In this document: in pieces, positions 4,099 to 45,682 of the stretch
Position numbering within the stretch: the first letter of the stretch is position 1
How the letters are laid out: every line of letters begins with the position of its first letter
NCBI GenBank assembly: GCA_029964075.1
Contig: CM057150.1
Span: forward strand, 992,001 to 1,056,000
Direction: 5' to 3'
DNA: 64,000 bases
Origin: Patiria pectinifera
Taxonomy: Eukaryota; Echinodermata; Asteroidea; Valvatida; Asterinidae
The notes under the pieces: model-generated
Database searches by the model: none
What the model saw: only the letters and a program-made list of their open reading frames with translations
Told to the model about the DNA's origin: nothing
Position numbers and translations under genes: made by a program

Positions 4099-4236
4099 CT
4101 ACTTATCCTCCGGTTTCATCCGTGCGAAGTCCAGCGAAGCGTACTCCGTTGATTCCTCTGTCTGGATGGGTGGTTGGTCTACAGGATGTTGCTTCATATG
4201 ACCCACCTCAGCATAGATCAAGCCGTCCTCGGTCAC
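4099..4236 (-). CDS. receptor exon 25: terminal exon with LIYAEV and TEYASL motifs
   Basis: Acceptor CTATTTTCCCAG, then 138 bp to the TAG stop (4099-4101). It codes VTEDGLIYAEVGHMK, then QHPVDQPPIQTEES, then TEYASLDFARMKPEDK. LIYAEV is a full ITIM match. TEYASL is TxYxxL, near the ITSM consensus TxYxx(V/I). The two tyrosines are about 27 residues apart, close to the ITIM-ITSM spacing seen in paired inhibitory tails. No PDZ-binding C-terminus is obvious. Confidence 0.9.
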   Translation of the reverse strand: MTEDGLIYAEVGHMKQHPVDQPPIQTEESTEYASLDFARMKPEDK

Positions 4237-7200
4237 CTGGGAAAATAGATTACAAGAAAGGATTATCATTATATTAGTTATCACCCAAGTGCGAGTGAAA
4301 AAGTGTACTGCGTCTGTGTCCCATATTCCACGAGGCCAAAGGCTGAGGGGCAAATGAAACACAGACACACTACATTTCCGTGAGTTTGTTACTGCATTCA
4401 ATAGGGGACGTTGAACAATAGAGGACAATAGGGTCCCCAATTCCTGAAGGTCCCAAATTTGGCGATGTGTAGAAATTATATGGGAGGTCTTCCTAAAAAG
4501 TTAAAAATACAACCAAAAGGGGGACAATAGAGGGACCCAATTGCAGGCAAATACACACTTCTGTGGGTGCAAATGGGTAAAGCAATTTTCTTCAAGTAAA
4601 TTTGATGTACAGTTATGATGGAACAAGCACGCTGTACACACACTTGTCAGCAGTTATCGTTCACGTGCATGCAGCAGGAATAGCATAGGCATCTTAGAAT
4701 AGCAGAATATGTGGAGTGTGACATGGATCGTGGTATTAAGTATAGGACCTACATTGTAGTGTTAGGTATATCACACTGTTGTTGCCATGGATTGACAAAT
4801 CAAAACTGCCCTGCCTGTTACTCCCAGTCCCGCCCAAGACTGCCCAGCACTTATCAGACTTATGGATTTGTCAGGGAATATTATAATGTATGTAACACAA
4901 TGCAATACAAGTGCTGGTCAATTTTATCTACATATACTAGTGTAAAGTAAAGTCTTTCAGGAGCAAAATATATGGCCCATCAGGCAGGAGTTTATGTCCG
5001 GATGAAACGACAGAGAATTGTTCCCCCTGGACGGGATGCCAGTCCATCGCAGGTTATTCCCCAGCTAATGCCGGTACCCATTTATACACCTGGGTGGAGA
5101 GGCAAGTGGGATAAAGTGGCCTGCCCTAGGACACAACATATTGCCAGCAGTTGGATTCGAACCCCTGGCTCTGATCATGAATCACAAGGCCCTAACCACT
5201 GGGCCAGACTCTGTTTTCCCATGTCCCTACCCTTAGTACACAAGGGCGGATCCAGAACACAATTTTTGGGGGGGCCAAAAAAAATTTTGGTACTCCAAAA
5301 AAGTGGGTCCAAAAATTACGGCGTGGGGTTCGGGGCCCGCTTAAGGGCCCCGAAAAAATTTTGGATTCTAGATGCTCCGTGGTGCGATCTGAGGCATTTT
5401 CTGACCACTTTAACCAATGTTTTTTTGAGGAAAAGATGGTGGTGTACTCATTGCCTGCCTTTTTTGCGATGTCACATATAAAAAAAAAAAAATTTGGTTT
5501 CGTTTTGGGGGGGGGCCATGGCCCCCTTTGGCCCCCCCCCTGGATCCGCCCTTGTTAGTACATTGTTATACTCTATTTCTAATACATGTATAAGGAAATA
5601 ATTTAATAAACAGCCCTAATGCTTTTGAATGAAGTACATGTACATAAAGTTCAAAGACTGGCCTCACTATGCTGCATGAGGGCTCCCTTCATGGACACCA
5701 TTAATTGCACGAAGAAGACATGACTGTTTGCCTATCGTTTTTATCTTTGGCAAATAAATATTGCGTGTGGGCTTAAGCGTGGTAAATCCATCACATTGTT
5801 GACACATCCGGGTTATGGTTCCGTCAAGCATGTCAAGTGTTTTGTTTTGGACTGTTATGCATGGACTTATGCCAAAATCACTTGAAATTCATTACGTGCT
5901 TATAAATTACAAACAAAATGACAGAATTTCCTTATTGTTGTTCTGGTTCATGCAACTTGCCATGAGGAAGTAAGTTGCAAAACTAAATTTTTGGGTCGAC
6001 AACCTTAATGACTAAAGCATGAATCATGTTTTCATGTACATGTAGTATTTAGACTGCCATTTGGTATAATGTTTGAAGATATGAAGATCTGATACCCATA
6101 CAACAGTATTATTGTTGCCAAGTTCTTCAGCAAAAAATAATAAAACCCTGAAAACGCAGCGTGAGAAGACGACCTTTAACACATCAAGCCCATCACCCCT
6201 CGCCCTTCATCTGTTTATTTTCTATTTTTATACTATCCAATCCATCTGTATATTTCACACGGATTCTACACAACATTTATCTTTTGTAATCAGACAGACT
6301 TTGCACTTTATCACTAAGTAAAGTCAGAAATCCCCTTCTAGAATTTTTCCTCTGTTTACTGACATTATTGAAACCGAAACCCTCTGTAGATATTTGCTTA
6401 ACAGTGCCCATTGACAAAGTTTCAAGTATTGAAACTAACGCCTGTAAGCAAACTGACAATATGGAGACAAACTCATTGTTAGCGAAAATGGCCTTTTTAT
6501 TTCTAGGTTTTGTTTCCAGGGAAAAGGGAGAGAGCCAAAATGGGGATTTTTAAATTAAAACCCCAATTTTTCTCTGTCAAACTATTTTTGGAAGGGGCAG
6601 TTGCTGCTGCACTTCTAAGAAAATATACAAATTTAAAAAGCAACAAGATGTCTCTATGACACTTTAATGCTTTATAATTGTAATGTCATTCCTGATAAAT
6701 GTTTATTTTTAAGACAGAACAAAGAAATGTATCATGGCTCTTGAACATGTTAAAGTGGGACACTTGGGGAAAAAAAGGTTGCTTATGAAAAAAGACTAAC
6801 AAATTTACGGGGGGGGGGGGGGCAATATTTTTATGAGGGGGCGTGTGCTCTCCACTTACTTACGCAGTTGATTCCAAAACTCAGCCAACTGAGCTATCCA
6901 GCCAATCCTACCGGTATGTTGCTAGTCCCCATTTTCCCCAATATTTTGTCCAGCAACAATTATTTGTTAAATTCTTTTTGTAGTAAAAAGAAAAGAAGAC
7001 TCACCACTCGTCCACTTGTGTCCTGTTGCCCCCCAACACTTGCATAAGTATCAGCAGAGTCTAAATGATCAAAACGAAAAATGTTCGTTTAAGGTAGAGT
7101 AAACCATTTGTAATTTTTGCATTTTTGAACAAAGGTGCTCAAAATCTAAAGACAGATGTTTAATAGCTAATCTGCTGAAGTTTTGGCTCTGTAAAATGCT

Positions 7201-10200
7201 GTGTATTTCGAGAAAACGGAACAAACATATACACCATCTCGAGACACAATCCCAAATCTGCATTCAGGACATGATTGTCATTCAGCGGGTCGTCACAGAT
7301 TCGCCAAATTGCAAACCAACTACAAATTTGATGGCACGGGGCATGATTTACCGAAATTTGCAAAAATGTGTCACTTGACACATATTTGAAAATGACCTTC
7401 TTTCATTGATTTCTTCAAAATGACAGCTTGACAGAACGAATAATTTTTACCGGGAGTTTATTACCATTACTTATCTTTAAACCAAGTAAGCATTCTCACA
7501 ATAATGTGGTCGGCTACTTTTTGGATAGCTGCAAATGATCTACTCTCCCTTTAAAATCTTTGCTTGCTTTCATCTGTTCCTATGCTCCCAATCATTCCTT
7601 CCTCCTTGCCCTGCTCCCCCTTTACACTCTCCTCAGCTTACGTATTATAATAATGATTTTCTCTTCACTGTTGCCGATAAACTGCAAGATTTCATAATAT
7701 AGTTGATTCGTGTACACCAGCACTTACAGGAAAGTTCTATCAGAACTTTTTGCTTTTTGTACCTTTCAATGTACGTGAAGCTACTTTTTGATTACGAGAC
7801 AACAAATGCGAGGAAAGCGATGCGGAATTCATCGGGGAAACGGGAGGGGGGGGGGGGGGTTTGGTACCCGATTGAAGGTACACCATAAATCGGTTGCTGA
7901 GTCAGACCGGAAGTCAGTGGTGTCCGACAATACCCAAGCCGCAGGACAAAGAATTCACTGGACTGGCACACACATCATTGACCAGGATGCACACTTCCTA
8001 TCACTTAAGATATGGGAGGCAATTCTGCCATCATAAGCTGTCAATGAACCATGGCTAAGGTTACCAGCTAGCGGCAGTTTACGAGGCAATCTTACAGCCT
8101 CATAATCAAACAGAGACAGGACAGTAGCGTCACGTACATCAGTGTTGTAGGACTCGAGTCCAGGACTCGGACTCGAGTCATATTTTTCGTGACTCGGACT
8201 CCACTTGAGTCACATTGGAAAATGACTCTGTCTCGGACTTGACCATGATGACTAGGACTCGAGCTGCGAGTCACGTATTTTCATCAAAAGAAAAAACATA
8301 ATGTTATGTATTTGTGCGACAAACGTAGCATTCTGTTTTACTCCATAGGCAAAACATGGCGCCGTGGAAAATCGTATCTAGTGGCCGTGCATGGACACAG
8401 CGCCTGCACGACGAGCACCAGGGCACAGTGCCATGCCAAAAAGTGTCCGGTACCAAAAAGTGTCTGCTTACAACAATGCTAATACTAGGCTGGGGATTTT
8501 TGAGCTAGGGATTTACTTAAAAGACAGAAGGGATGATTGAACAACAAATTTTTCAAAAATGATGAGTTTGGTGAACAACTAAGAACAAGTGACTCGTGAC
8601 TCAGACTTGTGACTCGAACTCGGGGCTTGTGACTTAGGACTCGGACTCGACGTTGGTGACTCGACTACAACACTGAAGTACATTGAGAAAGGCAGTCGGA
8701 CGGTTGCCGAAAGCTGTGATAGAATTTTCCCGTAAGTGCTGGTGTACAAGAATCAACTATATTATGACTGATCCTCAGCAAAGGAACCTTCATGTCATTA
8801 ACATTTTACTTTATTTTAGATATAATCACAAAAAAAGACAACCCGATATGAATTTACCTGCAGCTGGGGGGCTCTTTGCCTTGTCTTTGTCACTGATCTG
8901 CACCTCTTCATATGCTGACTCCTCAGCAGCTGAAATAAAATAAGTCGCACAGAGGAATGTCAAAACTCCTACAATGTCCAGTTTCATTCTTAAGTCATCA
9001 CTTTCTGTAAATGCCTGAGCATCATCAACTATTATAAAACAAGACTACACAGACCAGCTTGTACAAGCCTATTTTATTAAAGCTGGTCTACTTAGGGGTT
9101 TCGGTTTTGTAGGGGTCTATGTTGTGGGAGTCCTTAGGATCCAAAGAGACCTTTTGGGTCACAGTGAGGCTCAATCACAACTCATTGACAGTCAGTGAGT
9201 CAGTCAGATACAATGAGGACACGAGGCTGAACCACCAAAACTAGATTAAAAGTGTACTCCAATACTCATTAGTTCATTATTGTCGTGGCCTTATTGTTAA
9301 GGTTAACTCGAGTAGCTGATTTCACGAAACTTTACGCAATGGCGCAACTCCACTTGCACCACCATTTATTGCGTTAGCTGCGCAACATTTCACGTTGCGC
9401 AACATTTAACTTATGACACATTTCAAGAAAGTCTCACAGTGCACAAATCTGCTACTTGCGCAATATATTATGGCGTAACTTGCGCAATCGACTTACATAT
9501 AGGTGGCCGAAGTTGTGGCGTACGACTGAACATGACCTATTTTACCAGCAAATCGTGAGCGTCATGGAGCCTGTCATTGCACATTTTATTAAGGTTGATA
9601 CAAGACACTCACAGCTTCTTGTTTGAGGTTACTGAATTTCTATTTTACAAGTGACAATTTTTTTAGAGTTGCTGCACCATTCCAAAGAAAGTCCAAAAAA
9701 AATAATTTTCAGAATGGCGGGCTGGGGTGATTCAACCACTGTGTGTCTTGTCTATGGTTGTTCTGTTATCTGTCCGTTGTGTGTGTCTTTCCCAATGTTT
9801 GTGTAAGTCTTTTATAAGTCTCTTATCGTGGCCGTCTCGCTAGTTGCTCTACTGTGTCTGTCCGTCTTAACCTGCCTGTTTTAGACAACTTATTTCAATT
9901 GTTCACCTAGTTATTTTAAAGGTTTTTCTTGTATAAGTTTTAGTTTGTTCTTAAATTTTAACTGGTTCATTTTTATTTATGTGAAGTGCCTTGAGCGTAA
10001 ATTTTGACGGATTTGGCGCTTTACAAGAATTTGATATTTTATGTTTAGATTATTTAAAACAATGGGCCGCTATATGCCAAATTTGGTAAGTTGAATGCAC
10101 AGCTGCACAACAACTTTGCTCTGCAAGTCGTACGCATGGCACAAACTACGCACTTTTTCCTGAAATCGGCTGCTGGTCTTAATTACACACACAAAGCTTA

Positions 10201-13200
10201 GCTTCAGTTGGAATTCAAAATGCACATTACAAAGACTGGACTGGTCCTCTAGACTGGTCCTCTGGGCTAGCAAAAACCAATTCTTGGAAAACATGTTTAA
10301 AGCCGGTCATAAAAACTCATAAATTGCCATCTGTACCTCTGGATGACGGAGGAACGTATTTCTTGGGTTTCTTCTTTGCTGCGTAGTCATCTGATGGTAA
10401 GACAAAAAAATGGAATATCAATAAGATTAGAATCGTAGGTGGGCTTGGTTGGTGGCCTCAGGCTACGTCATAAAATGGAATTTGCGTCAATATCGAATTC
10501 TGCCCTTTGGTGGAGGGCAAAACCCAATGTTGAATTCTCGTCCTCTTTACTAGGCCATGGTTTGCAACTACACATGCGCCTATGCAAGGGCGCTGATAGC
10601 TTCTCAGAAACTGGGGAGATATACCTTGATCAGAACTACTGTGATAACCAAGTGTGAAACGCAAAGCCCTAATGGCGTGGGGTTCGGCTTAAGGGCCCCA
10701 GAAAACTTGTGGTGCGATCTGAGGCAATCTCTGACCACTTTAACAATCTTTTTTAGAAAAAGATCATCATTTAACCATATTTTCCGAGTTTGGAGTCGCT
10801 GAATCAGCAATTTTGAGATATAGAATCAAATAGGCTACAACTTTTATTCGGGGACGAAAACAGTGGGGGGCAAACGATATGAAATCCACCAACTTTAAAA
10901 GTGGGGGGGGGGGGGGGAAGTGGGAGGTGTACCTACCATGAGGTGGTTTGGGTTTCTTGTCCTTGTTGACTTCAGCATAGGTCACATCAGGCAGATCTGA
11001 AATGAAACAGACACAGATTAGTCCGATTACAAAATGAAAAATCAAACTAACTGCAGTGAGATGTGAACCTGCGACCCCCAGAATACCGTAGCAGACACAG
11101 TGGAGTTTTCCTTTTCCCACACTGCCAGTATGCCGGGCTCCACGCACAAGTGCCCCCACAAAGGTAAGAAAGGGAGAGGTATCAGTAGGGGAGACCACTG
11201 GATTGCAACTTCCAAGGCCATACTGTTAGAACCTGATGCCAATTGGTGGCAGTGGCGTAGCCACCAGGGGGGCGTGGGGCGGGACGACCGCCCCCCCCCC
11301 CATGAAACCTTGTCTCCCCCCCCCCCCCCCACTGAGATTTTGAGTTTCTAAAAATATTATCATTGATCTAAATCTAAATAGTCGCGAATGATCCACATGA
11401 TGACCACTGAGAAACGACCCTTCGACCGGCGACCGCGGACCAGTAAGCTGACAACCGGCGTGACATAGCGCATAATGATAATCTAAAATAATTATTGGTT
11501 AAAGTGGTAAGAAATTGCCTCAGATCACACCACAGAGCATCGACAATCCAATTTTTTCGGGGCTGATTCAATGACATAAAAAAAAATTACATAATCATTG
11601 CAAAGATTAACAACATAAAATGTTTTGTGTGTATTCTCCTTGCAGATGCCTAACAGTAGAAAAAACACTCAAATTCAGGAATATCTTAGAGGGTTAAAGT
11701 TTGGTTACGTTTGGGACATAGCGGGTGCGAATTGGACTTGCCCTCAAAGGATAGTCTGAAGTGAAATGAACTTACTTGTGGGAGCTGATCTGGCCGATTG
11801 AGGCTTAGGAGGCAATTTAGTCTTGTTGACCTGTGCGTAGGTGTCTGAAGGAATGGGGAGAAAAGTAAATAATAAATTGTAAAGGTTTTATCAAATACCA
11901 TGGTCCATCACTATTAGTAGCAAAACAAGGATCCCATAGCAACCAATGGTCACCTTACATTTTCTATGACACAGTGTCGTATCTAAATGGTGGTCACATG
12001 TCAAAGTACCAGGTCAACTGCCAAGATTTGAAATATGTCAGTACTCTAACTTCTACACTGGTTCCAACCTATCCTTCTCTAAATTTCGAGAATAGGGTCT
12101 GGGAACCAGCTTAAATTTGCTCCACTACATGTATCAATGCAATAAGGTTTAAATCTGTCCTATGACAATTAGTGATTTCCAACCGTAAATAAATAAACTT
12201 GACATAAAGCTTTGTATCAAGTACCCCCGGTACATGCACATAATGCTTTTAAAAATTCAACCAGAACATTAAACAAGTTCTACATCACATCACACTACAC
12301 ATAAATGTACAAATGTAGAACATTTACATGCAGCATGCAATCTACTTGTTTAACTTTTCGCTATCGAAGTGTTGTAATCGTGATGGATTAAGCCACACAC
12401 ATGTGCATGTGTATTCTAAGAAAAGTAAAATCATTCGGAAAATTGGTCAATAAATGCTGCCTCGCAATGGTCACAGTGTTACGCTGCAGACTGTAAACAA
12501 CGAAATAAAAGTCACGCCTGAAGATTCCCACTTTCTTAACCTTGGTGCCGGAGGCTGTGTACACGCAAAAGGTATGCGGTATTTGGAACAGATAACAGAT
12601 AAACATGCAGGAACCTGAGCGAGGTCGGAAATATCTGTCAGCGACCCGCTCGCAGCAAGCGAGGCCAAAAATATGAGTGTGCTGCCCAAGGTTGATGGCT
12701 TCTACCCGCCTGGCTTGAGGTCAGGTGGAAATATATCCCGCGCCTCGTTCCGTTCTTGTCAAAATAATCCCAGCGTGAACTGGTTAATGAGACAGCACAA
12801 CATGCTCGGAATAAACACCAGTCCGTAGTGAATGGTGGCCTTGAATCGGCATGATGCCGTTGCTGTGCCAACGACCGTTTTTAATGATCTTACGTAACAC
12901 TTCGATAGTGAATTGCACAAGACTATGCTAGAATCAAATTATCAGGCCCTTCCAACCATTACATCAACAAGCATTTTGCTACATGTACAATGTATTACAA
13001 CATCTAAATACTCACCCAACCTGCTAACTACCGTATGCTAGTGCAATGACAGGTGTTCATGTATGGTTTAGAAATGACTGATTACAAGTACTTCAGAGAC
13101 TTAACATAATTATTTCATTGAGACCAAAGCTGGCAGTATAACATGACCTTCAGATGTTAGTGTAAATCTTGATCCTCTGCCAAACCCTATTAGTATCACA

Positions 13201-16200
13201 CCTTGATTCATTAAGTTAATTTCTCAAGTTAAGCACATTATTTTGTTTCTGTGATCTGCAGTTAAAATAAGGACAGAACAAAACCCATGCACAGGACATT
13301 TTTTTTTAATGTGAATCATGAATTCACTTAGTACTGAAATATAGCCCCAAAAAGGGTTATAAGCCAAAGTATAACATAACATTTGTTCATATTGTGATTG
13401 ATTATTTTTTTTTTTAATATTTGACCTGTAATATTTCCATGCTAAGCCATGTTAGCATTTCTATTAACATTGCTTATTTTCTGTTTGAAGGGGAAGGGTA
13501 GGGTTTGACTATCTACAAAACCAGGCCACGCCCTTTTCCACCACACCCTTTTCTACCAGACACTACCTACTTGAGTCATGCTTGTTGTTTCAGTAATCAG
13601 TACATGTACACTCTAAACTCATGGAGTGATGACATCAGGGCCATCCACTGGATGCTGGCATAAGACATGTACATGTAAGCGAACACTACATCTATGTATG
13701 TATTGTCTGAACACTTAACTGGTTATTGGCTATATTATTGCCCGTTGCAAATTTATACCATATTAAAAACAGGACTGAAGCATGAACAGACTGTAAAATC
13801 CAGAAAGCAGGGAGGAACGATGTGACTACTAGACAAACAAATGGACAAACAAACAAACAAATGGGTAGGACAAACATGAAAAGTCTCAGGGTTTTTTTAA
13901 GTGAGGTTTTCAAGTGACTGATGGAAAAACATTGGATATGTTGGAAGACAGAAAATGATGGCAGAAGAACCAAAGAAGATACTGAAAGAAGAAGACAAGT
14001 ATGACAGGTTAAGATGGGTTATGATTAGCCGACCTCCACTGTCCACGGTGTATCTCTTGACAGGAATGGGTCCTTTCGTAGTGTCTGCTTCCAATCCATC
14101 TAAGGTTAATTAAACAAACAAAAGCATTCCCTCTCAGTGCTTGGGGGCAATCAATTCTGACAAGCAAAATATGGTAGAAAGCTGCAGATTTGTAATTTAT
14201 AAACACATTCATTAGCGATGTACGTTTTGCATTTTAGCAGAAAACTTGAGGTAAACAAGAAGTTAGTGTTATCAATGATTAAAACTGAAGCTGAGCAGAA
14301 AGTTTAGCTTTTTCAAGTTTATATTCTGAAAGAATAAGCCAAAAGACACATAAATAACGTGGCTTTTGGCTGGTAATTTGCTGAGAAATTATTTTCTGTC
14401 TAAGCATTAACAAATTTTTGACTTCAGTGTCCTAGCTTATGAACTAAAAATAATGACAAAACTGTCTATTCTTTTTTGGCAGGTATTGGTTTAGCATTAT
14501 GGTGTTAAAATCCTGCAGCAAAAACTGTAAACAACTTAATAATAATATGATTTTATCTTGTAAATGAAGGGCAGCCAAGGATGAACAAATATTGGGGGTG
14601 AACTTTGACCTCAACCTAGTCAATACACATTTTAGGTTCATTCTCAATAACCTTTTACAAGTTCTAGTCAGTGAAAGTTTTTTTTTTCTGTGAAATTTAC
14701 AACATACACGAAAATCAGGTTGTGGACTGCTTTCAAACCTTCAAAGTGGAAGTGAAAGTGAAAAATTAGAGAACAGGAAACCTGTAATATGACGCCATTT
14801 CCTCATTCCGGTGGCTCATGTACCCTACATGGAATGCCAGGCTATTCTCAAATTGAAAAGTCCTTGAGAGAGTACAGTGTACCTTTGTAACATAACATGC
14901 GGTTAGTACCGGTAGCAAGCAACAGTGTTGACAAGGCACATGATGCATTTCGATTACGTTTTAAAAACATCCATTGAACCAAATTGTAACACTGAACATG
15001 CACATTCATGCATAACATTTTGATAAGAGACTTACATGCAATCCATGCACTACGCTCACATTCAGCAACAGGCAACACACATAACAAGCCACTGACCCAA
15101 CACAACTTGATCACGTCATAATAGTAGCCAAAATGGTATTTCGTTCTAACACGACTAAATAATTCAGGTCAAAGGTCATTCCAAGTGACACAGTTCGCTG
15201 CTTACCTTGCAATGTGTTAAATGTGGCACTTTAAAATCAATTGCAGAAAATGCCACAAAAAAAACAATTCCACTGAATATATGGCTTTGTTGTCTTGGTG
15301 ATCGCTGTTTGTTTATCCTAAACACTGCTAAATATGATTTTTTGAAATATCTTTATATAAGAAAATTAATATTGTTTCCAGAAAATATTTCTTGTCTCAC
15401 TCCCTAGAAATATTTCTAGGGAATGAGACAAGCAAGGTTTTCTCGAAATAAGATGTTTTTCTACATGTGTGTAATTTAAGAATCTTTATTTTTTTATTTT
15501 TTTTTTTTTGGCAATGAATGACCCTTGACCTGCTATATTTAATGCATACAGTGTTTGAATACCAAATTAGCATATTAGAAAAAAATTGTCCATGAATGCC
15601 ACAATGTCATAATCAAAAACTCTACCAATCAAATGTCATACAATTTGCCCAATTATTCCCAAATTTGACCGTCTGCATTGTGATATACATGCACACCTTC
15701 TTCTGTTGGTTCAGCATCAGGCTCTTCATTTTTTTCTGGCTTCTTTTTAGGAATTTCTTCATCTACTGCAGCAAAATAGGATTCAATGTGTTGGTTAGTT
15801 CAGACTACATGCAGGTGCTGTTAAGAGATTGCTGACATGGCCAGAGATTTCTTGGGGCTGTTACAGGGGTCAGCGGAGCTGGGGGGGGGGGGGGGGACGA
15901 CGAAAAAATCATGTTGGAAGTTGCTACAGTTGTATACATTTGTGGGTGGACCCTATGTTATGTTCCCCACCTTCCACCTCTGTGAGCTGGGTTCCACTCT
16001 CACCCAGGCTGCTCTGTGGATTGGGTTTTCTATCCCAGCCAGATTCAATGGGTGCCCACCCCTAAAACTGAACAATTGTTTTAGCATCTTCTCTCGATAT
16101 ACTAGGTTTCTTCAGGCATCTGAGACATGTGGAGTGCCATGGCCTCGTGGTCTAGGGCATTGATTTCGTGGTCTGCGGGTAATTCTGCGGGTTGTGGGTT

Positions 16201-19200: not shown

Positions 19201-22200
19201 ATGGCCTGGACAGAAATGAAAGTGTTAATTGACACTACGATCAAGAGCAATAAATACGGGAAATAAAAGTGAAACTTGTTATCTAATGTCTCAATGCCAA
19301 GATCATGAAGATAAAAAAAAAAAAAACAAAAAAAAAACCACCTATTCCTATCACACACATGACACAATGTCAATGTGAGCTATTTTTTTCTGTTTTTATT
19401 ATGTTTAGCTTTGATCTGAAAATAAAAGAAGAAACTTTTCAAAATCCCCGACTTTTCTGGATTGATTTTCAATTACACAATGTCAAAAGTCTGGTGATAC
19501 AAGCTTTCGGTTAGTTTTTGTTGTTAAGCTTTAAATTGAAAGTAAAATCGGAAGAGCAAGCTCCTCCTCCATGTGTTCAGAAATCCCCCCTCCTCCCCCA
19601 CAGCTCCTGGATTTTTAAACACACTATCAAGACTACATGTATGTCACTCTACATGTAATTTTGTAACAAAATTTTCTTTTCAAAATTTTCTGTTAGTTTT
19701 GTAGCTCAATGAAGTGAAGTAAAAACACGATTCATCTTGTTACGAGATCATAAGTTTGCAAAATCAGACCTCTGTTAGCATGTGTGTTAGTAGCCTCAGT
19801 CGCAGACTCTGCAGATGGGGAAGGTTTCTCAGAAATGCTCTCTGGTTTCTCTTGGACTGTGTAAAAGCAATACCATGGTTAATTCTAAGATCTGTTATGG
19901 AGACTAGGCTATCAAAAGTTTGGGTTTGTTAGTTTAGAGCTGTTTCGTCAAGATGCACTTGAAGACAGAGATTGTCTTGGGACTCTTCCATGAAATGTAA
20001 CTCAAGAAGAAACTGTCAGTGCCATTGACTTGGTCTGATTGGCTATCATGCATGGTCACATGAACTAACAGTCATGATCCAATTGGTCGAATTACACTAT
20101 TTGATTTACATGTAAAAGCTGATAAGGCCAAAAAAAAAAAGTCTCCGGTTTCTGGTATGGAGCTTGTCCAAAAAGTGGTGCGGCGACGCGGCTTTTTAAA
20201 AATTTTTTACCTGACTTTTTTTTTTTTTACCTGACTTTTTTGCTTCAAATGTCGGCTGGTGACTGCAAATGGTGCCCGACTAAACTTAGTGCAAATATAT
20301 GGGAGTCCAGAGAGGCCACATAAAGCTTATTCTCGATCATAACCCCATCTAAAAACACGTTGAAATTGCGCAGCAGCAGAATTCCAGTCAAACCAGTGAG
20401 TTTGGCGGTTTTGAGGCATCATCTTTCATTGAAAAAAAAAAGTTTTTCATTTTGCCGACGCGCATGGCTACGGCGACGCGCGCGCATACCAGAAACCGGA
20501 GACTTTTTTTTTTTGGCCTAAGGGTACATTTTTTGGGTCATATCTTGCCCAAAAAAGTTAATTTCACAGCAAACGAAATCAACTCTTAAAAACTACCGTA
20601 AATTTAAAAGCAGATAATAGTAAATTGTTAAATGTTAATTGCAGCAGACCTTTGTTAGTAGCCTCATCTCCAGTCATTTTGGGTGGAGACGATTTGACCA
20701 TCTCATCTAGGACTGTGTAAAAGGCATGTAAAAACTAGTTAATTCTAAGAGAAGTTATGAAGATCAGGCTATCAAAAGTGTGGGCTTGTTAGTTTAACCT
20801 TAACTCCACAGGGGATGTGCTAAATCATATTGAAATTGGAGGATTCAGGACTATTAGAGCTATTGCTACTTCATCAAGATACATTGGAAGACAGAGATTG
20901 TCATTGGATGATTACATCCAATGAGTGCTGTGGCCTCGTGGTCATGAGCATTGACTTTGTGGTCTGCGGGTAATTCTGCAGGTTGTGGGTTTGAGTCCAG
21001 CCTGGGGTCACGGTGCGTGTGCCCTTGAGCAAGGAACTTTGTCACTCATTGCCTCTCCCCACCCAGGAGTAGATGGGTACCTATGAGGGCAGAGTTGGTT
21101 ACTGTGAGAGGTTGATTACGGCCAAGAGCATCGAAATGGCTGCCTACCAGCCATGTTTGCTCCTCAGGGAGTTGAGAAAGTTTCAGGAGTGTTTGCCGGT
21201 TGAACAGGGTTAATAATAATTGTAAAGCGCTTTGATAAATGTGGTATTAAAAGCGCTATATAAACACCTGTTATCATGGTTATTATTACATGTGCCAGTA
21301 ACTCAAAAAACAGAAAATGACTTTCTGATAAAAGCTCCTTAATACAGCATTTGCATAAGCTCCACCGACCTCTGGAGCATTTCTCACAGTGACGGTGACT
21401 GAGTTTGACCGAGCTATTACTGTCACATGACCAAAAGTCATGATCTCATTGGTTGAAGTGCAGTATTTGATTTACATGTGCAAATGTGTCACATTTTGCC
21501 CCCCAAAAATTATACAACATGATTTTAAAAAAAAAATGGAAAAAAAAAAAAACAATTAAAGAAATAAGATCATTGTTAGTGTTAATACAGCAGACCTTTG
21601 TTAGTAGGCTCATCTCCAGCCGTTTTGGATGCAGCAGATTTCATTATCTCACCTTCAACTGTGTAATAATAATCATAATTACTATAAGATAAGAATTACA
21701 AGCAACATACATCAGGCTTCAATGCACAGAATCTAAAGCCATTTTTAGGGACTGAAAACCACACAATCGTGATCAAAATAGTTCAAGCACATGTAACACT
21801 TAATGAAATCAAGCTCATTCCCCCACTACACTTTTCTTTCTTTTTTCTTCAGGACTAAAATATGAAGTTGATTTGGTCATGTTGGATTTTCCTTTTTAAA
21901 AATTATATTTAATTCCGTTATTGCTTTTTTTTGCTAAGAGGTTGGGGGGGTGGGTGTGCGAGGAAACTTGGGTGGGATAAAACAACATTATTAAAGAAAA
22001 AAAAATTATAAACTACCAATTGTTCTTTATATGAGCTCCATGGACGGACAACAATGGTTTTTCGTACTGGTTCAAGCGTATACAAATGTACATGTCTAGA
22101 GTGAAATACGCATTACTACTTTTTTTGTGATGTGCACAAAGCAACAGTGTCTATTCGTGATCATAGGGCGTCTCAGCAAAGCGTCAAAATATCTCTCCCA

Positions 22201-25200
22201 GTACACTGTCTCCCCCAATTCTCCCTTTCCTGCCGATGAGGGAGCCCTATATAGACACTGCCATTATGCTGCAAAGCATTGATAAAGCTGATGACACATG
22301 TACATGTACATGTAGTTCATGTTTTGATATTTGCTAAAATGATGAGGAGATCCCTTACATGTCAACAAGAGCCTCTGCCTGAGTTGATTTATCATCCACT
22401 TATCAATACCGAGCATTCCTTCTAACACAGTATCAGGTACAGGTGTTTTCCGGACTTTGTCTTAATTGGTTTGTACTTTGAAGGTTTAATCACTGGGTGG
22501 GGTTGAAAACAGGTTAATGTACAAAATTGTACAATGTTCACCACTTCAGATTTCAAACTGTATTACTGGTATGTTCAAAAATAAAATAGTATCATGGGTG
22601 GTCGTAAATTTGTTTTATCTCTCGTCTTCCAAAGTACAGACTAATTACATAAAAACAAGTTTGACTTTTTTGTGCACGTTTTTTTAACCTAGGTTATTCT
22701 ATCTAGGTTATGCAGAGTTCACTGGTTGTTATGCACAACCCCGGATTTGCGTCATCATGATAATGTACATATTTGTTGTACGTGTATGTTCTGATACAGA
22801 TATGGAATATTTCAGTCCCTGTCTTCTCCCTGGGTTTCCCCCGCATGTTTATCCAGAGTTTTCTCCCCCATAAATTGAGCATTTTTTCATTATCTTCAGA
22901 GCTACAGGTTCCTCAAGCCTTGGAGCTGAGGTGCCATGGGTGCTGTTAAGAGACCTTGGTTCCATTACAGAAAATAAATGAAACAAAAAATCCAACGAGT
23001 TGCAGCCCCCCAAAAATAAATTTAAAAAAATATGGCTGAAAAAAATAATAATACCTAGATTCTTGATCACTAGCACGACTATTGCTACACAATGTGTCAA
23101 AAATTACCAATCTGTGCTGATAAAAGTATCAATATATAAATGGAATTATGAATTGAGTAGTTTGGCTGACGTGTGGTGGTGGGTGGGTGGGGCACAGCGT
23201 AGCAGGGGAGGCATATGAGGACAGTGTATCAGAATGGTATCGATCAAAGCACTCTAAATTATAAGGTTACTAAGTATGTATGTTCAGCGATGAAAAAACA
23301 AGATATTTTTTTTCAAATGAAATTTTAATTTTTGTTGGGGGGGGGGGGGGCGGTAATAAAGGTACATGTATGTGGCAGAAACTTTGATTTGTAAAAGCTG
23401 ATGCAGTATACGTACACATATGGTACAATTATTGTTTTCATTGTGTAGGGCCTACATGGGTAGGGTGGAGGGGGGTGGGTGGTACAAAATGCAAAGCTGT
23501 ATTTTTGCCCACAAAAAAATTAAGAGTTTTCATGGTATCAGTGCAAACCATCCAAAGCTTATCTCCCAGGAAAACCAGGCCATTTCCCCCCCTAATATAG
23601 TTCATATTTCACTACGATCAGAAATGAGGACAATGATGTGTCGGCACAAAAATCCACTTTCCATGAAATGACTAGTATGATAAGTCTGGCAGGATGTGTG
23701 TGACGGGATGTGGGAGCAGCGATTGACTGTTTTCCCTGACCTGTTTTTTGAGGGAGGGATGTTTCCCTCTTGGGGGGAACGGGGTACGCAACTTTTCTTT
23801 TGTTTTCCATGGTCATATAACCGTTGTCGCCTTCTGCATGAGCATAAACCAAAAGCAATTTCTACATTTTAACAAAAATTCTACAGCTGCATTATGATCA
23901 CTCTCTCGTAATATACTTTTTTCTTAATACTAGCTCACATATCAATTCAATATTATTATTTGCTTTTGCGACTGACTTGTTTATTTACACTGTATACTCG
24001 ATGTTGTCTGAGGGCTTGAGAAAAAAATTCACCAGCTTGTTCAGGTTGGACTTGAACCCACAACCACCTACTTAGAAGTGCAGGTGTCTTGCTAGGGTTG
24101 GCTGGCTAGTTCAAATCTGACTTACATGTATTACGAATACCACAACCAATCATTATCATTTGTACGATGGAATTATGAGCCAGAATCAAAGCAAATTTGG
24201 ACTCGTAAGAAGTCAATTAATTTTATACAGATTCTAACCCTCTCATCATGTGACCTGTCACTTTTGTAATTACCGGTACATGTAAAGGCCACTTTGGCAT
24301 GCGCATTTACAGTCGGTCTGTATTTCATGGAGTCTAACTTTCACACTACACCTGCCTCAGTGAACTTGGTTGTCATGGTAAGACCCCCGCACTAGTAAGC
24401 AGGAGGTCATGGGTTCGAGTCCCATCCCAGCGATCTAGTGACATTTTTCTGACAAGCCCTTAGAAAACATTGAGTATACAGTGTTAAATTTACGTCAGTG
24501 CAGGCAAAAACTCAAATTTAATTTACATCCCCCCTGATGTAAAAACAAAATTACAAAAAAAGTTGTCTTGACCACGTCTGGACCAAATGGTTAAACAAAA
24601 CATATCTCATGAGTGCTAAAAGAAATGTTGAAAAAAAGGATCACTTCTCTCTTTTTATTATTATTTTTTTCTCACATCTACGCTTTTGTCATGTTTGTAA
24701 ACAGAAAAGAAACAAAACTCTTTGACTGAAAGCATTTAAATCTTGCAGACCTTCCTCACGCAAGGACCTATATCCAGAAAAAGAGATGCGAGTTTCCTTC
24801 TCTGTGATAAATGTTTCCTCATCATCTATAGGACGGAAATGAACAAAAACTAGGCTAAACTTTAAAACAGGAATACAGTCAAAATGTACATGTACCATGG
24901 TGATATACATGTACATGTACATAAGGTCTTCATTTAGTCAAAATGTTAGATCTAAATAATCTCTGTTTATAGACCTTTCTTTCACTTGTAAACAATGTCT
25001 GCCATTTATTAATGAGCTGCAACAAGGCACAAACATTATTTTCCGTGACAAGCCCTAGCTTTCAATCCCACTGTTTGGATAGACATTGCAAAAGAAATTT
25101 TGATGAATATACAGCTGTGTACAGAAGTTACAGTTAAATGAGTAATAAAAATAACAATGAAAAATATTAAGAAAGATCAGGCATCTGATCTGCAGAAAAA

Positions 25201-28200
25201 AGCAAAACATACTACATGTTAACATGGTTAATATACATAGACATGAACGAACTGAATATAGTTTTATTGACAGTGACTGTCCATAGTTGGCCAAAACTAT
25301 GGCTATTACATAGCAAAAGACAGGTAAGGGGAATGAGTTCTAACAATGAAAATAGTTGGTGAAGGATCATGCATCTGAGAAATCTGTAGAAAAAAAGCAA
25401 AACATAAACATTAGATAGAGTACATTTGCAGCTGAGTCCTACATCATTTCATGCTCTTACATGCCTGATGTTGGAAGAGTTGGTTATTAAATTAAAGACA
25501 CACAGTATAGATGAAGATGCATCCCCACTGCACATGATTAAAAGGTGATAAGAGAGTAAAATAACAGAGAGGCAGTCAAGTGTAGATCTGTGTCCAAGGC
25601 TGAAACAGTGAAAGGCCTTGAAATCAACTTTGTTGCAAACATTCTTCTGTCTATTTTGGGTATGAGCAAGGGTTGAAATCAATCTCAACTTGAGAGTACC
25701 GTATTTTCGTATCCTTGTCCTAGAAAAGTTCATCACAAGTTTTCACAAGTCAATCAGTCACATTTTCAAATGGACTGATGGTCGTTAAGGCCGGTTCATA
25801 CTCGGTGTCAAAGCGAATGTGAATTTTGTGACGTGAATTTTGTGACAAGTTTTAGCACTGAAATTTAAAAAAAAATTAACCCCTCAAAAATTGAACCTTT
25901 TCCAAGCAAATGTTTTGTGGCGTCAAATTCGCTGTGTTTCTTTGATTTTGCTTAGAGTAGTCATTACTTGTGACTCAGCTTGTGATCAACTTGTGATTTA
26001 CTTGTGACCGGGCAGATGATGGACTTTTGAAGGATAAAGCTGGCCTCATGTCAACCTACAATTTGCCTGCACCATGACGGAACCATCCTTGGTCAAGGCG
26101 TTTCTCAATGTTGTCCATGAAAAATATAAACACTAGCCGTGCGCCAGCTATGTCCTGTAGAAGGAATGTTTGTTCTTTGCCATCTGATTTGCATATTGTA
26201 ATCTGATTTGCATATTGTAGTTTCAGGAGGTCGCTGTATGGGCTTCCCACAGTGCACCATGCAGCGAGTGTTTTTGTTTTTAGCAGTGAGATACCATCAC
26301 CTGATTATGGACACTATCGACAAACGGCTTGACCAATGAGTTCCCTCGCGGGGAAAGCAAATCACAGGTCGACCCAAGGCCAGCCTTAGGCTACAACACT
26401 TTCCCATCAGTTTTTCCAGCTTCTACTTCTTGCTGTTTCTGCCCGAGACACAGACCCACACTTGACTACAAGACTCTACATGCAAGAACAGAGGATGCAA
26501 TGTAGCTGAGGACCAGACCTGTTACATCAGCATCCTTCTTGGGTCTGAAGACCAAAGGTCCTGTGGCTTTCTTGTCTTTGTGTACTTGGGCATAAGTTGC
26601 TGAAATACAAATATTTATGGGGAAACATATGGGTACACTAAACTAACAATCTTGAGCAAAATGAATGAGTCTGACTGCAACTATCAGCAGACTATGAAAC
26701 ACTGAAGAGGTCGGGGAAAAACCTGAAAGCCTCAACTGAGTTTGCACAAAATGAAACCTGATGTACATGTTGTAAAGAGGTATCTACATGTACTTTTCAG
26801 TTTTGGTATTGATTACGAATCATTCAATGATCTGATGACCAAAATCAATTGACAACTATTCATGTGCAATTTCAGAAAAAAAAATCTTATCCTGTAACTC
26901 GGAAATTTGAAGGAAATGGCATTCCACAAACATTTTTTTTCTTCTGCCGAAACAGGAAGTTGCGTTTATTTTTGTAAAAACCACATGAATGTTGACAAAC
27001 TGCAATACAACTTGTATTCACCAGGAAACCAAGCTGCATAAACAGAAACTGATACCTCTTTACAACAATCTTCTAGTGGTTTTCAAAACCACAAACCAAG
27101 GTGATCACAATTCCAATTAAGGCCTTGGCCATCGGCAAAACGTTTCCAAAGAAACACTTATCCTGTCAAGGTACAGTTCTTCCTTGTCATTAATCAACAT
27201 GTCCAACCTAAAACAAAATAGGAATTCATGGTTGAAGAAGAAAGAAAAACATTACATTCAAGTCAACAAAATGTAAACAGCTCAACAAGGAAAGACATCT
27301 CAACACAGAAAGACACACAACACTTATTTGCATTAATCCAGAAGTTTTGAGTATTGAAGTTCAGATAGAAGTGGTTTTCAGGGTTTTGTTTATGAAAGGT
27401 TTACCGTTGTTCAGCAGGGCTTCATTTGTTATGCCATTGTTCTCCTCTGGCTGCACATCATGGCTGAAAAGATGGGGGAAAAATAAGAATATAAATCAAA
27501 TAAACTGATGAATGAAAGCTTTAAGAGGGACTTCATGTTTAAAGACTCATTCAGCGATAGCCATTTTCTGAAGGGGCACCAGGCTTGTAAACACACACTC
27601 CAGGCTCCTTCAACCAATAGTGTTATTTAAATGTGCATACAGTACACGTTGTCTTTAAGAATGTTTTCGGCATGAGCGCGGATAAAGAATGACTTCTAAT
27701 TTTGTTTGCCAAATTAGTTTAAAGCAAGTCAAAATCTGTTGATTAATTTCATAACCTCACGTTATCAAACTAGTGAGTCTCATGTGACCCGCCTGAGTGC
27801 CATGTTGCATTTCTTCATCACACCTTATTTTCCAGCTAATTTCTTTTGTATGTTTTGACTTATGTTAGAATTGTCTATGAACAAATGACATACCGGTATG
27901 CCATTCCTTGAAGTTACTAAGTTCTGAGGTAAAACAAATTTTCTCTGAGACAGAGGCATGTCACTGGAAACACAGGTACGTACATTTTCAAGGAAAACAA
28001 AAATGGCATTGATTTGCAGTAAATTTATAATAAATTATAAAATCCTTACACTAATAATTTATTTTCCTTGACTGTTTCAATAAATTCAAAATGGAAATTT
28101 AACCAAGTCATTATCTTTTTTCTACATGTTTTTAACAATGAGTCAATTTCATTATTTTTAAACAAAGTACAATTTGGTTAGTGATGTGAATAAACTGGAC

Positions 28201-31200
28201 ATAACATAATAAAAACCAAAAGCAACAATCAACAGATGACATAAAACACATCAAATAACTTTCAGTTTCACTTAGGAAACCACAAATGAGCCTTTGGGCA
28301 GGAATTATTGGTAGATTGGGAAGGATTTGGCCAAGGAAATTACGCTCTCAAACAAAGAATAGCAAGCTCAGGCACTGCCTGTTACTTGTACATGTACAAG
28401 TGGGGTTTTTCCAAGTCACAGACCCACTTTAATGTTAGTAACTTCCTGAATTCTGAACAAACAACAAAACTGAACTTTCAAAGACCTAGAAAGCTGATGC
28501 TTGGCAACTACATGTAAACTAATGATTAACAATACTACTAATGCTTGCAGTACCTGTATTTATTCACTTTATAGAAAAGCTATTTAATAAAACCTACTTA
28601 AGTGATCTCAAATAATTAAATCGTAAAAGTTACAAGGGTCTTATGTTTGTCTTTCACGAGAATATCTATTTTCTTAAGGAAGAATAACTGGCTCAAGTGG
28701 GTGAAGGGGGGGGTGTTGTTTGACATCCCTCCAGCAGACAATTTCTTAGGAGAACAACTGTACTCCCATGTGGTCCTAGCCAGGAATTGAACCTGGGCCA
28801 CATTGGTGAGAGGCAATCGCTTTAGCCTCCCATGCCACCCTCATGTATACATGGTAGCCATAACACCCCCCCCCCTTCCTATTTCAAACTTGACAAAATA
28901 ACAGCAGTCTGTGGGTTCCAATGTACACATGCAAACCAAAACTTGTATACAGTGAGTATACAGTGCTCATGACATACATGTACACATACCTGTATGTTAA
29001 TTGTTTGAAAGGCAAGACCAAAGTAAATAATTAACACATACCGGTACCCTAACAGCTTTATTTCATGAGGTTCTTCACAATTTTCCCCATGTAGTGAAAT
29101 TAATTATTATCAACTGACCTTTGCTCTTGTAGTTCAACGTCTCGAATATCATCAGCAGGGCTGAAGGAATCTACAAGAAATAGTACAAGAGAAAAGTACC
29201 CCTTTTAAAGAGAGTCCGTCAAAATGAGTTTTTGGATAGGGCACAATCAAGGTTATAAATACCAATTCCAGTCTTATAAATTAAAAATAGAGATGAAGCC
29301 AAAGACTTTTCATCTCTTTCGTTTACAAAAGATCGATCGACTCAGCTTTACCAACCTTCCTTGCTATTCCTCTTCTTGGGTGAGGTCCTGACCAAATAGA
29401 CAATCAGAACAACGATGATAGTGATGAGAACAAGGCCTCCTAATGTCGCTCCAACAATAAGGCCAATATCGGGTCTGAGGGGTGCATTAGTTGGCTTGAC
29501 TATCACTAAGGAGCAGTAAAAAGTATTAGAATCATTATTATTATTACCCTTTTCATCATGCCAAAGCAAACGTTCCAAAGATAATCTCAGCTAAACGGAG
29601 AAATACATCTAAATTCTTAATATGTGGTGTCAACAGGTCACTGCAACATTGTGGACTGCAATTTGAAAGTAAAGATTTCCCTGTACACATGCAAGATAAA
29701 CACAATTCACACAACCACAGCTTCTAACAAACTGGTCAGGAAGGGTTTTAGCAGTGCAATTTTTTGCATAATACACATTTGCTATAAGATTTGAGGCTTT
29801 GCATGGTCGAGACCAAAGACAAGGTAATGCAGGACTGTTCTTATCAGAACTAAAACTACTTAGCGAAAGTTGATAATAAGCAGGACAAGTTCTTTTAAGA
29901 ACTAAATATCTACTGAGTAGTAGTTATTACCACATGGTGTTACCGCAAACCAAAACACTACACATTTGCTTAAAGCACTTGATTTTAAAGCCTATTTAGC
30001 GTTTAAATCAGACTAAATCAAACGCTAAGGAAATATGTTACGAAAAAAATTAATTTGCTGACAACCAGTCAGGTGTACATCATATCTTATTTTGGCTTTA
30101 AAAAGGCTTTACTAAGCAAATTTTCACTTCTTACATGTAGTAATTTAAGTCTTAAGAAAATATACAATAAAACTGGATCAAATTTTTCAGAAGACAGAGT
30201 GCAACAGTTACCAATTTCAGGATCTGCTGGTTCACTACAAGTTCTGCCATTAGTGCCAAAGCAGTATTTAGATTGGACAGCAACAATGTCCCCTACAGCT
30301 CGTCTTCTTCGCTTCTGTGATGATGCACACCATTCAGAGAGGGTAACTGTCTGATCAGACTCAATGCAAGCTCCACACTTCTGCCAGGCATCGTTGCCTT
30401 CGTATTGGACTTCCAGCTGGATGCATCCATTCCCTTTATTCAACCCTTCAACTTCCACGGTTCCACTTTGCTTGTTATACTTAACAGTGATACCTGATAA
30501 TTGGATATTAAAAAAAGGTCATGAACAGGTACCGGTATGTATAATCTTACAAACCTAAATCATACATGTACGGTATGTATAAATCATTTCAATCCCTCAA
30601 TTTTCATGGAAACAGAATCCACTATACTGATCCTTAAAGATCAGTCAGGATTTTAGGGGAGGGACGAGATAGCCGTACCCATGAAGTAAGCAACAGGACT
30701 TTAATGTTTCCTGCCTCATTGATGCAATTTTCCATTCTGAGAACTCTAGTTTTTAGCACAAGGGTGGGACAGATTTTTTCCTTTCATTTTGTTTACGGCT
30801 GAAACTCTCCTTTATTTAATTTTTAATGTACAGTAAACTCCAGCTAAGTCGGCACTCTCGGGACCCGAAAATTTACACGAATGCCGACATCTGCTGTAAG
30901 TGTTCATTTTGCCAACTTACATGAATGGCCTTTTTTGCACATGATTCATTGCACTAATTGGTTTCAATTTACCCTGGTTTATCTCCTTAATGCTTGAGTT
31001 GAATCCAGCAAATTATAATCCTCGAATTTTAAAATCACGGGCTGGGTTATTGTTAGTGGAGATCTAGTATAGAAAATAGTAATACATGTACGTGTACAGT
31101 TACGAATTAAATGCGTGCGTGGTATTGATTGCATCATTCAATAAGACAACCCCCAAAATAGACAGAGCGCATGCGTACAGGACTAGAGGGAGTATTGGTA

Positions 31201-45527: not shown

Positions 45528-45682
45528 AGCAAAATTTAAATTAGTAGGTTTTTTTTTTATTCGCCGAAGCACGCGCAAGCATTGGCACGACGCACATGCG
45601 CTTACTATAATTCGTCGGATCAGTGCGGGACGTCGCATATAGCTGCAATTGAAAACAATTCAAAACATGATTAGTCAATATT

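What the first reader, a model, noticed from the sequence alone, without database searches (positions are those of the whole stretch)
4099..29170. Receptor tail assembled from a cassette of small, symmetric tyrosine-motif exons
Seen: 17 tail exons join in phase, and 13 of them (exons 11-23) are phase 1-1, so any can be skipped or repeated without breaking the frame. Motifs include ATYAQV, SGYRSL, GYMTM, DTYAQV, VTYAEV, SAYEEV, DTYASV, LIYAEV and TEYASL. Known: (S/I/V/L)xYxx(I/V/L) is the ITIM consensus and YxxM binds PI3K p85. Inferred: alternative splicing could produce many tails with different numbers and types of phosphotyrosine docking sites from one Ig/FN3 receptor. I know of no described receptor in this lineage with this layout, but could not search.
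Basis: partly seen in the sequence, partly recalled or inferred. Interest (0 to 1): 0.82.

Follow-up and report, generated by a model that had tools for sequence, protein, structure and literature searches.

The report
Starfish receptor with swappable signalling-tail exons
A starfish cell-surface receptor gene carries a long inner tail cut into many small, frame-neutral exons with inhibitory-type tyrosine signals, and relatives on the same chromosome have gained, lost or multiplied these exons one by one, which suggests that the tail can be rewired like a kit of parts, although no RNA has yet been looked at.

Summary
The minus strand carries 25 in-frame GT-AG exons; 17 encode the tail, and exons 11-23 are all phase 1-1.
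The exons are real by comparison: three paralogues on the same chromosome keep many or all of them, and exons differ less than flanks (2.4 v 5.6%, 3.1 v 9.3%, 5.1 v 11.6%; indel events 1 v 78). Cassettes turn over singly: paralogue A has a stop at one motif tyrosine; paralogue B has at least 16 intact copies of the SAYEEV exon but has lost exon 24. The ITIM/ITSM-like end exon recurs at 43 further places on the chromosome.
Best reading: an inhibitory, SHP-2-type Ig receptor of a sea star, with a fixed ITIM pair at the end and optional cassettes before it. Alternative splicing is untested. Nearest precedents are PECAM-1 and Dscam tails; I found no description of this family.

The parts
44058..44354 (-). 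exon 1: Ig (CD80-like C2-set), phase 1-1
   Evidence: Pfam PF08205
43341..43652 (-). exon 2: Ig, phase 1-1
42525..42830 (-). exon 3: Ig (I-set/Ig_3), phase 1-1
41373..41702 (-). exon 4: Ig, phase 1-1
40757..41041 (-). exon 5: FN3, phase 1-1
   Evidence: PF00041 43.1 bits
33825..33848 (-). exon 6: 24-nt linker exon, phase 1-1
30212..30493 (-). exon 7: Cys-rich juxtamembrane beta domain with RRRR furin-type site, phase 1-1; family marker
29356..29505 (-). exon 8: transmembrane segment, phase 1-1
29119..29170 (-). exon 9: tail, phase 1-2
   Evidence: copy in gene B
27405..27463 (-). exon 10: tail, phase 2-1
26519..26599 (-). exon 11: cassette ATYAQV, phase 1-1, GTCTG donor
24751..24825 (-). exon 12: cassette SGYRSL (ITIM), phase 1-1, GTCTG donor; stop at the Tyr codon in gene A
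23741..23833 (-). exon 13: cassette GYMTM (YxxM), phase 1-1
21596..21658 (-). exon 14: spacer cassette without Tyr, phase 1-1, GTCTG donor; duplicate of exon 15
20650..20712 (-). exon 15: spacer cassette without Tyr, phase 1-1, GTCTG donor
19770..19856 (-). exon 16: spacer cassette without Tyr, phase 1-1, GTCTG donor
18771..18845 (-). exon 17: proline-rich cassette (KKYQAP), phase 1-1, GTCTG donor; broken by a stop in gene B
15697..15765 (-). exon 18: acidic spacer cassette without Tyr, phase 1-1
14034..14099 (-). exon 19: cassette (KRYTVD), phase 1-1
11776..11844 (-). exon 20: cassette DTYAQV, phase 1-1
10937..10996 (-). exon 21: cassette VTYAEV (ITIM), phase 1-1
10337..10390 (-). exon 22: cassette DDYAAK/YVPP, phase 1-1; present twice in gene A
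8858..8929 (-). exon 23: cassette SAYEEV (ITIM), phase 1-1; at least 17 copies in gene B, 16 intact
7005..7060 (-). exon 24: DTYASV, phase 1-0; frame connector to exon 25; deleted in gene B
4099..4236 (-). exon 25: terminal exon LIYAEV (ITIM) + TEYASL (ITSM-like), 24 residues apart, stop TAG

Best explanation
This is the long-tailed kind of a sea-star family of Ig/FN3 surface receptors that very probably signal as inhibitory (ITIM/SHP-2-type) receptors. Shown: ectodomain, transmembrane segment, the 17-exon tail, its conservation, and cassette gain and loss between paralogues. Inferred: after ligand binding a Src-type kinase phosphorylates the tail; [quoted passage not shown] the cassettes before it, 13 frame-neutral exons, are included or skipped to set the number and kind of extra docking sites (SHP-type YAxV/YEEV, PI3K-type YMTM, proline-rich stretches) and their spacing. 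The same frame-neutral design lets evolution add, delete or multiply single cassettes without harming the rest.
For: 25 exons in one frame. Exons constrained against introns in three paralogue comparisons. Gene C keeps exons 10-25 one for one. Cassette turnover: A has exon 12 with a stop at the Tyr codon, exon 22 twice, and no hit for exons 11, 18, 23; B has 16 intact exon-23 copies and exon 17 with a stop. YxxPhi excess p 4e-6. The end exon recurs at 43 places in C22:22.65-24.26 Mb; in the 5 copies read it has LIYADV and TQYADI at the same spacing of 24, and the one upstream stretch read encodes Ig domains and a TM-like segment. A SHP-2 orthologue is encoded: five exon matches of 68-79% identity covering N-SH2, C-SH2 and the start of the phosphatase domain in C6:19.698-19.722 Mb, two of them with a stop inside the match (query recalled). 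Weak GTCTG donors kept in 12 of 12 paralogue copies.
Against: No RNA. All 8 ectodomain/TM exons are phase 1-1 as well, so phase gives no sign of skipping. Tail donors as a group are not weaker than those of exons 1-8 (p 0.27). dN/dS of the tail is only 0.41-0.54 with one-sided p 0.04-0.07, and the three comparisons share one gene. In gene B the variable sites of the exon-23 array are not under purifying selection (pairwise dN above dS), and exon 25 is out of frame after the loss of exon 24. Seven of 13 cassettes carry no YxxPhi. The second motif of the end exon, TEYASL, is not a full ITSM.
Confidence: 0.6

Rival explanations
1. Constitutive multivalent scaffold: all tail exons are always included, giving one long tail with 9 docking sites, as in nephrin- or IRS-like scaffolds; exon symmetry reflects only growth by exon duplication.
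For: Phase 1-1 is the default of the whole gene; exons 11/20/21 and 14/15 (and weakly 16) resemble each other as duplicates would; in gene D all 17 and in gene C all 16 tail exons read are intact.
Against: Broken single exons in genes A and B would truncate everything downstream, yet the downstream exons read in A are intact and, as a set, constrained; weak GTCTG donors in six exons. The breaks could be recent, so this is not decisive.
Confidence: 0.27
2. The tail is real but its function is adhesion or endocytosis rather than ITIM signalling: the YxxPhi motifs are sorting signals and the prolines bind SH3 proteins.
For: YxxPhi is also the AP-2 sorting signal (established knowledge); several cassettes are proline-rich; the ectodomain resembles adhesion proteins contactin-2, PTPRD and SYG-2.
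Against: The end exon has two YxxPhi at a fixed spacing of 24, shared with a second Ig-type family whose second motif is a full ITSM, TQYADI; the upstream V/Ig region also matches CD22, Siglec-8 and NKp30.
Confidence: 0.12
3. Genes C and D are haplotypes misplaced in tandem, so the cross-gene conservation is allelic and says little.
For: By substitutions, tail exons are 97.6% and flanks 94.4% identical.
Against: Same 36.4-Mb contig, 0.54 Mb apart; TM exon 76% in DNA and juxtamembrane exon 72% in protein differ far more than the tail; genes A and B give the same exon/intron contrast at larger distance.
Confidence: 0.08

Closest known systems
PECAM-1 (CD31)
   Same: Ig receptor whose cytoplasmic domain has eight exons subject to alternative splicing and two ITIM-type motifs; variants lacking exon 14 do not bind SHP-2 (PMC5664058, passages read)
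   Different: Here 17 tail exons, 9 YxxPhi, plus spacers, a YxxM and multiplication of one ITIM exon in a paralogue; the ectodomain has FN3 and a furin-type site; alternative splicing not shown
Arthropod Dscam tails (shrimp, Daphnia)
   Same: Ig/FN3 receptor with skippable tail exons: 7 in PmDscam, at least 384 tail isoforms; Daphnia can include or omit ITIM/ITAM (PMC6851185, passages read)
   Different: PmDscam has no ITIM; diversity there is mainly in alternative Ig exons; here I saw no arrays of alternative Ig exons and the repertoire comes from gene copies
CEACAM1 long/short tails
   Same: ITIM tail included or lost by splicing (PMC4113144, search listing and start of abstract only)
   Different: One switch rather than a row of cassettes (recalled)
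PD-1 / Siglec ITIM-ITSM pair
   Same: ITIM at Y223 and ITSM at Y248, 25 residues apart, docking SHP-2 in PD-1 (PMC7078208, passages read); here the spacing is 24
   Different: TEYASL ends in L, not V/I; no sequence orthology tested or claimed
Hydractinia Alr family
   Same: Clustered, diversified invertebrate V-set/I-set receptors, 41 members (review PMC11999971, passages read); ITIM/ITAM tails recalled, not read
   Different: No cassette tail known to me; a starfish allorecognition role is unproven

Membership tests
ITIM-bearing Ig receptor | Ig ectodomain, one TM, at least one (S/I/V/L)xYxx(I/V/L) in the tail | tested here: met
   4 motifs by this consensus
ITIM-bearing Ig receptor | motif is phosphorylated and recruits SHP-1/2 or SHIP | not testable with these tools
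   only the presence of a SHP-2 orthologue was shown
PECAM-1-type spliced tail | tail exons alternatively spliced in RNA | not testable with these tools
   no transcripts held
PECAM-1 (CD31) family | Ig-only ectodomain without FN3 | tested here: not met
   FN3 exon 5, PF00041 43.1 bits
Dscam | 10 Ig + 6 FN3 and arrays of alternative Ig exons | tested here: not met
   4 Ig + 1 FN3 + 1 beta domain in the window, 3 more Ig frames upstream, no Ig exon arrays seen there
Nephrin/SYG-2 | about 8 Ig + 1 FN3, nephrin orthology | tested here: inconclusive
   SYG-2 is the best PDB match of the three upstream Ig frames (7e-10), but contactin-2 and PTPRD lead for exons 1-7; no tree built
ITIM-ITSM pair (PD-1, Siglec) | ITIM then TxYxx[V/I] | tested here: not met
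   second motif is TEYASL; the second starfish family does have TQYADI
Paired activating/inhibitory receptors | short-tailed partners with a basic residue in the TM | tested here: inconclusive
   13 of 14 family loci without the cassette tail show a hydrophobic stretch of another type, without a charged residue in it; read from open frames within 1.5-kb flanks, their tails were not read

The most novel reading that the evidence does not exclude
One starfish chromosome carries two immune-type receptor complexes that share a fixed ITIM/ITSM end exon. In one of them signalling tails are built by a combinatorial splicing code of frame-neutral cassettes, whole tail blocks are exchanged between receptors with different ectodomains, and a paralogue has turned one ITIM cassette into a 16-copy array whose copies drift between YEEV, YEAV and YEEM, i.e. 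between SHP-type and PI3K-type docking. It would be an invertebrate counterpart of the mammalian leukocyte receptor complex, possibly serving self/non-self recognition.
Probability: 0.25. Interest if true: 0.88.

Novelty: new variant of a known kind. Interest (0 to 1): 0.64.

Why it matters
Receptor diversity in animals is usually sought outside the cell. Here, as far as I read, each ectodomain exon occurs once in the gene and the inside is modular. If cassettes are spliced in combination, the same recognition event could be read as different degrees of inhibition in different cells, which can be tested directly. The clustering of ITIM-type Ig genes on one chromosome also gives a candidate locus for starfish allorecognition, a behaviour reported for coelomocytes of Patiria pectinifera (PMC9763293, abstract and outline only); those parts name no receptor gene.

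Tried and rejected
Chance: rejected by the paralogue comparison. Extra undetected cassettes in the introns of this gene: none recognised; matches outside the model had E 0.06 or worse, the best being exon 22 itself read by a neighbouring query. Allelic duplicate of gene C: unlikely. A simple 'all 13 are tyrosine exons' reading: rejected. Weak donors as a hallmark of all cassettes: not significant. Fold of the juxtamembrane domain: AlphaFold mean pLDDT 77; Foldseek's best match had E 0.068 and none was significant, the more plausible ones being FN3/cytokine-receptor domains, so 'FN3-like' is only a lean. One search placed matches in minus-strand search loci wrongly because I had assumed another orientation; one search corrected this and only its placements are used for genes A and C. 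Topical paper searches listed no description of the family or its tail in the rows I saw; a review of immune diversification (PMC13428168, passages) and a Dscam study (PMC3364881, passages) gave nothing on it.
Full report
What was checked. I rebuilt the gene on the minus strand by hand from splice borders and frame. Twenty-five exons join without a stop from 44354 down to the TAG at 4099. Exons 1-4 are Ig domains and exon 5 is FN3 (Pfam), exon 6 a 24-nt linker, exon 7 a cysteine-rich domain with RRRR, exon 8 the transmembrane segment; exons 9-25, with the end of exon 8, encode a tail of 421 residues. Exons 11-23 are 54-93 nt and phase 1-1; exon 9 is 1-2, exon 10 is 2-1, exon 24 is 1-0, exon 25 is terminal. 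The gene probably goes on outside the window: three further Ig-coding frames on the same strand, one a V-set (27.8 bits, cut-off 26) and two C2-set-like (41.4 and 37.2 bits, cut-off 21), lie at window-numbered 69714-71916. I did not find the first coding exon.

Of the 13 symmetric exons, 9 contain a tyrosine and 6 a YxxPhi; exons 14, 15, 16 and 18 have none. Of 14 tail tyrosines 9 are followed by V/I/L/M at +3 (background 11.5%, p 4e-6). All eight ectodomain and TM exons are phase 1-1 as well, as is usual for Ig genes (recalled), so the phase pattern permits skipping but does not argue for it.

The family. The juxtamembrane exon 7 finds 18 further copies at E below 1e-11, all in C22:0.05-2.39 Mb, among 37 rows at E up to 1. 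I aligned 15 of the 19 sequences (left out: three with a stop inside the match, one without a locus); all 15 keep an R-R/K-R-R site. The V-set frame finds 22 matches, 21 of them in C22:0.16-2.50 Mb and one at 13.4 Mb, at 32-100% identity. In the tail search four loci carry the cassette tail: A (6-52 kb), B (634-721 kb, opposite strand), this gene, D, and C (1.53-1.57 Mb) (99 of 135 candidates scored). Of 14 other family loci read, 13 show a hydrophobic stretch of one of two other types downstream of exon 7.

Conservation. Gene C has exons 10-25 one for one; the stretch expected to hold its exon 9 was not fetched. Gene A has 8, 12, 13, 16, 17, 19, 20, 21, 22 (twice), 24 and 25; exons 14 and 15 were not found in a stretch read except for 101 bases; exons 11, 18 and 23 gave no hit. 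Gene B has 8-13, 17, 19-22, 25 and many copies of 23, and gave no hit for 14, 15, 16, 18 or 24. With 100-base flanks, exons plus splice borders against flanks differ by 2.4 v 5.6% (C, 15 of 16 exons), 3.1 v 9.3% (A, 9 exons) and 5.1 v 11.6% (B, 12 exons, one copy of exon 23); indel events 0 v 26, 0 v 20 and 1 v 32. One, one and two flanks over 35% divergence were dropped, which works against the contrast. Pooled dN/dS is 0.50, 0.41 and 0.54 (the length-changed exon 17 of B left out), one-sided p 0.067, 0.039 and 0.073; these share gene D and are not independent.

Cassette turnover. In gene A the tyrosine codon of exon 12 reads TAA. In gene B a 6-base insertion puts a TAG into exon 17. Gene B holds at least 17 copies of exon 23, of which 16 have intact borders, frame and tyrosine; the last has Tyr to Cys and a 2-base deletion. 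In the one 10-kb piece read as a whole, the repeats are mostly 1.563-1.566 kb apart and mostly 88-99% identical. Among the 16, the motif is YEEV in 8, YEAV in 4 and YEEM in 4; by my count the distinct changes are 9 non-synonymous and 2 synonymous, and pairwise dN is 0.075 against dS 0.050 (17 copies), so there is no purifying selection at those sites. YEEM would turn an ITIM into a YxxM. Against a rosy reading of gene B: a deletion between its last exon-23 copy and exon 25 took exon 24 with it (no exon-24 hit in B), and exon 23 joined straight to exon 25 meets a stop after nine codons. Gene B may be decaying at its 3' end or may use an end I have not found.

Tail exchange. From window 25022 to 27864 the tail region matches gene C at 90.1% over 2,910 bases, and tail exons of D are closest to C. 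Near exons 7 and 8 only patches of 110-363 bases match C at 79-85%, whereas genes A and B match there at 82-83% over 785 and 568 bases. Exon 8 of D is 85% identical to B and 76% to C; for exon 7, however, A, B and C are equally distant (73, 74 and 72% in protein). Recombination or conversion between about 27.9 and 29.3 kb would explain this, but the matching stretch of C was not read, so the point is suggestive only.

The end exon. LIYAEV and TEYASL are 24 residues apart. The exon is 98-100% identical in the four genes (protein) and recurs at 39-61% identity, E 5e-6 to 0.025, in 43 further places in C22:22.65-24.26 Mb and one on a small contig. In the 5 copies that I printed (of 10 cut out) the motifs are LIYADV and TQYADI, a true ITSM, at the same spacing. 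The DNA upstream of one copy encodes two Ig domains over the Pfam cut-off, a third weak one, and a TM-like segment. An ITIM-ITSM pair 25 residues apart is the docking site of SHP-2 on PD-1 (PMC7078208, passages). The genome encodes a SHP-2 orthologue.

How it probably works. A constant SHP-2 docking end and optional cassettes before it. Shown: sequence, frame, conservation, turnover, presence of a SHP-2 gene. Inferred: phosphorylation, SHP-2 recruitment, inhibition, alternative splicing. The best sequence hints for skipping are the dead single exons in A and B and the poor GTCTG donors of exons 11, 12 and 14-17, present in 12 of 12 paralogue copies read; as a group, tail donors are not significantly weaker.

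Relation to what is known. Spliced ITIM tails exist: PECAM-1 (PMC5664058, passages), CEACAM1 (PMC4113144, listing only) and Dscam, where shrimp has 7 skippable tail exons and at least 384 tail forms but no ITIM (PMC6851185, passages). The principle is therefore known. What I did not find in print is this family, a row of 13 frame-neutral cassettes with ITIM, YxxM and spacer pieces, or the multiplication of a single ITIM exon. The library holds open-licence papers only, and several of those searches were aimed at PECAM-1, Dscam or Hydractinia.

Lineage. No name is given for the genome. It encodes all 24 residues of a starfish relaxin-like gonad-stimulating peptide A chain that I recalled from memory, so it is very likely an asteroid, perhaps close to Patiria; the species is not established.

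Noticed in passing
C22:22.65-24.26 Mb (loci L077-L086, L087): Forty-three further places with the ITIM/ITSM-type end exon (LIYADV...TQYADI in the 5 printed): a second receptor cluster; the one upstream stretch read has Ig domains and a TM-like segment.
   Followed up: partly
window 30212-30493 and 14 paralogues (alignment A1): Juxtamembrane domain with a conserved R-R/K-R-R furin-type site between conserved cysteines: predicted cleavage of the receptor into two chains that disulphides may hold together.
   Followed up: partly
C22:662028-719524 (L053-L055, L067-L072, L034): Gene B: at least 17 copies of the SAYEEV exon, many in about 1.565-kb repeats, 16 intact, motif drifting between YEEV, YEAV and YEEM; exon 24 deleted.
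   Followed up: yes
window about 27.9-29.3 kb: Possible recombination point between tail and ectodomain: the tail is closest to gene C, the TM exon closest to gene B.
   Followed up: partly
window exons 11, 12, 14-17: Six tail exons share the poor 5' splice site AG|GTCTG, conserved in the paralogue copies read.
   Followed up: partly
window 45671-47673 and 52304-55418, + strand: Interrupted frames that look by eye like reverse-transcriptase (LINE-type) elements, in the large interval between the upstream Ig frames and exon 1; not searched.
   Followed up: no
window 18420-18720: Tandem repeat (TGATAGTCTGTGATAATCTT...) directly downstream of exon 17; the open frame holding exon 17 runs on through it, 168 codons in all.
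   Followed up: no
C2:12.06-12.29 Mb (L001-L008): Very dense array of FN3 exons, a large share of the 150 scored FN3 matches of the genome: probably a giant repeat protein.
   Followed up: no
L073 (C22:1534423-1538000): In gene C an intron near exon 24 holds a tandem array with a period of about 113 bases.
   Followed up: no
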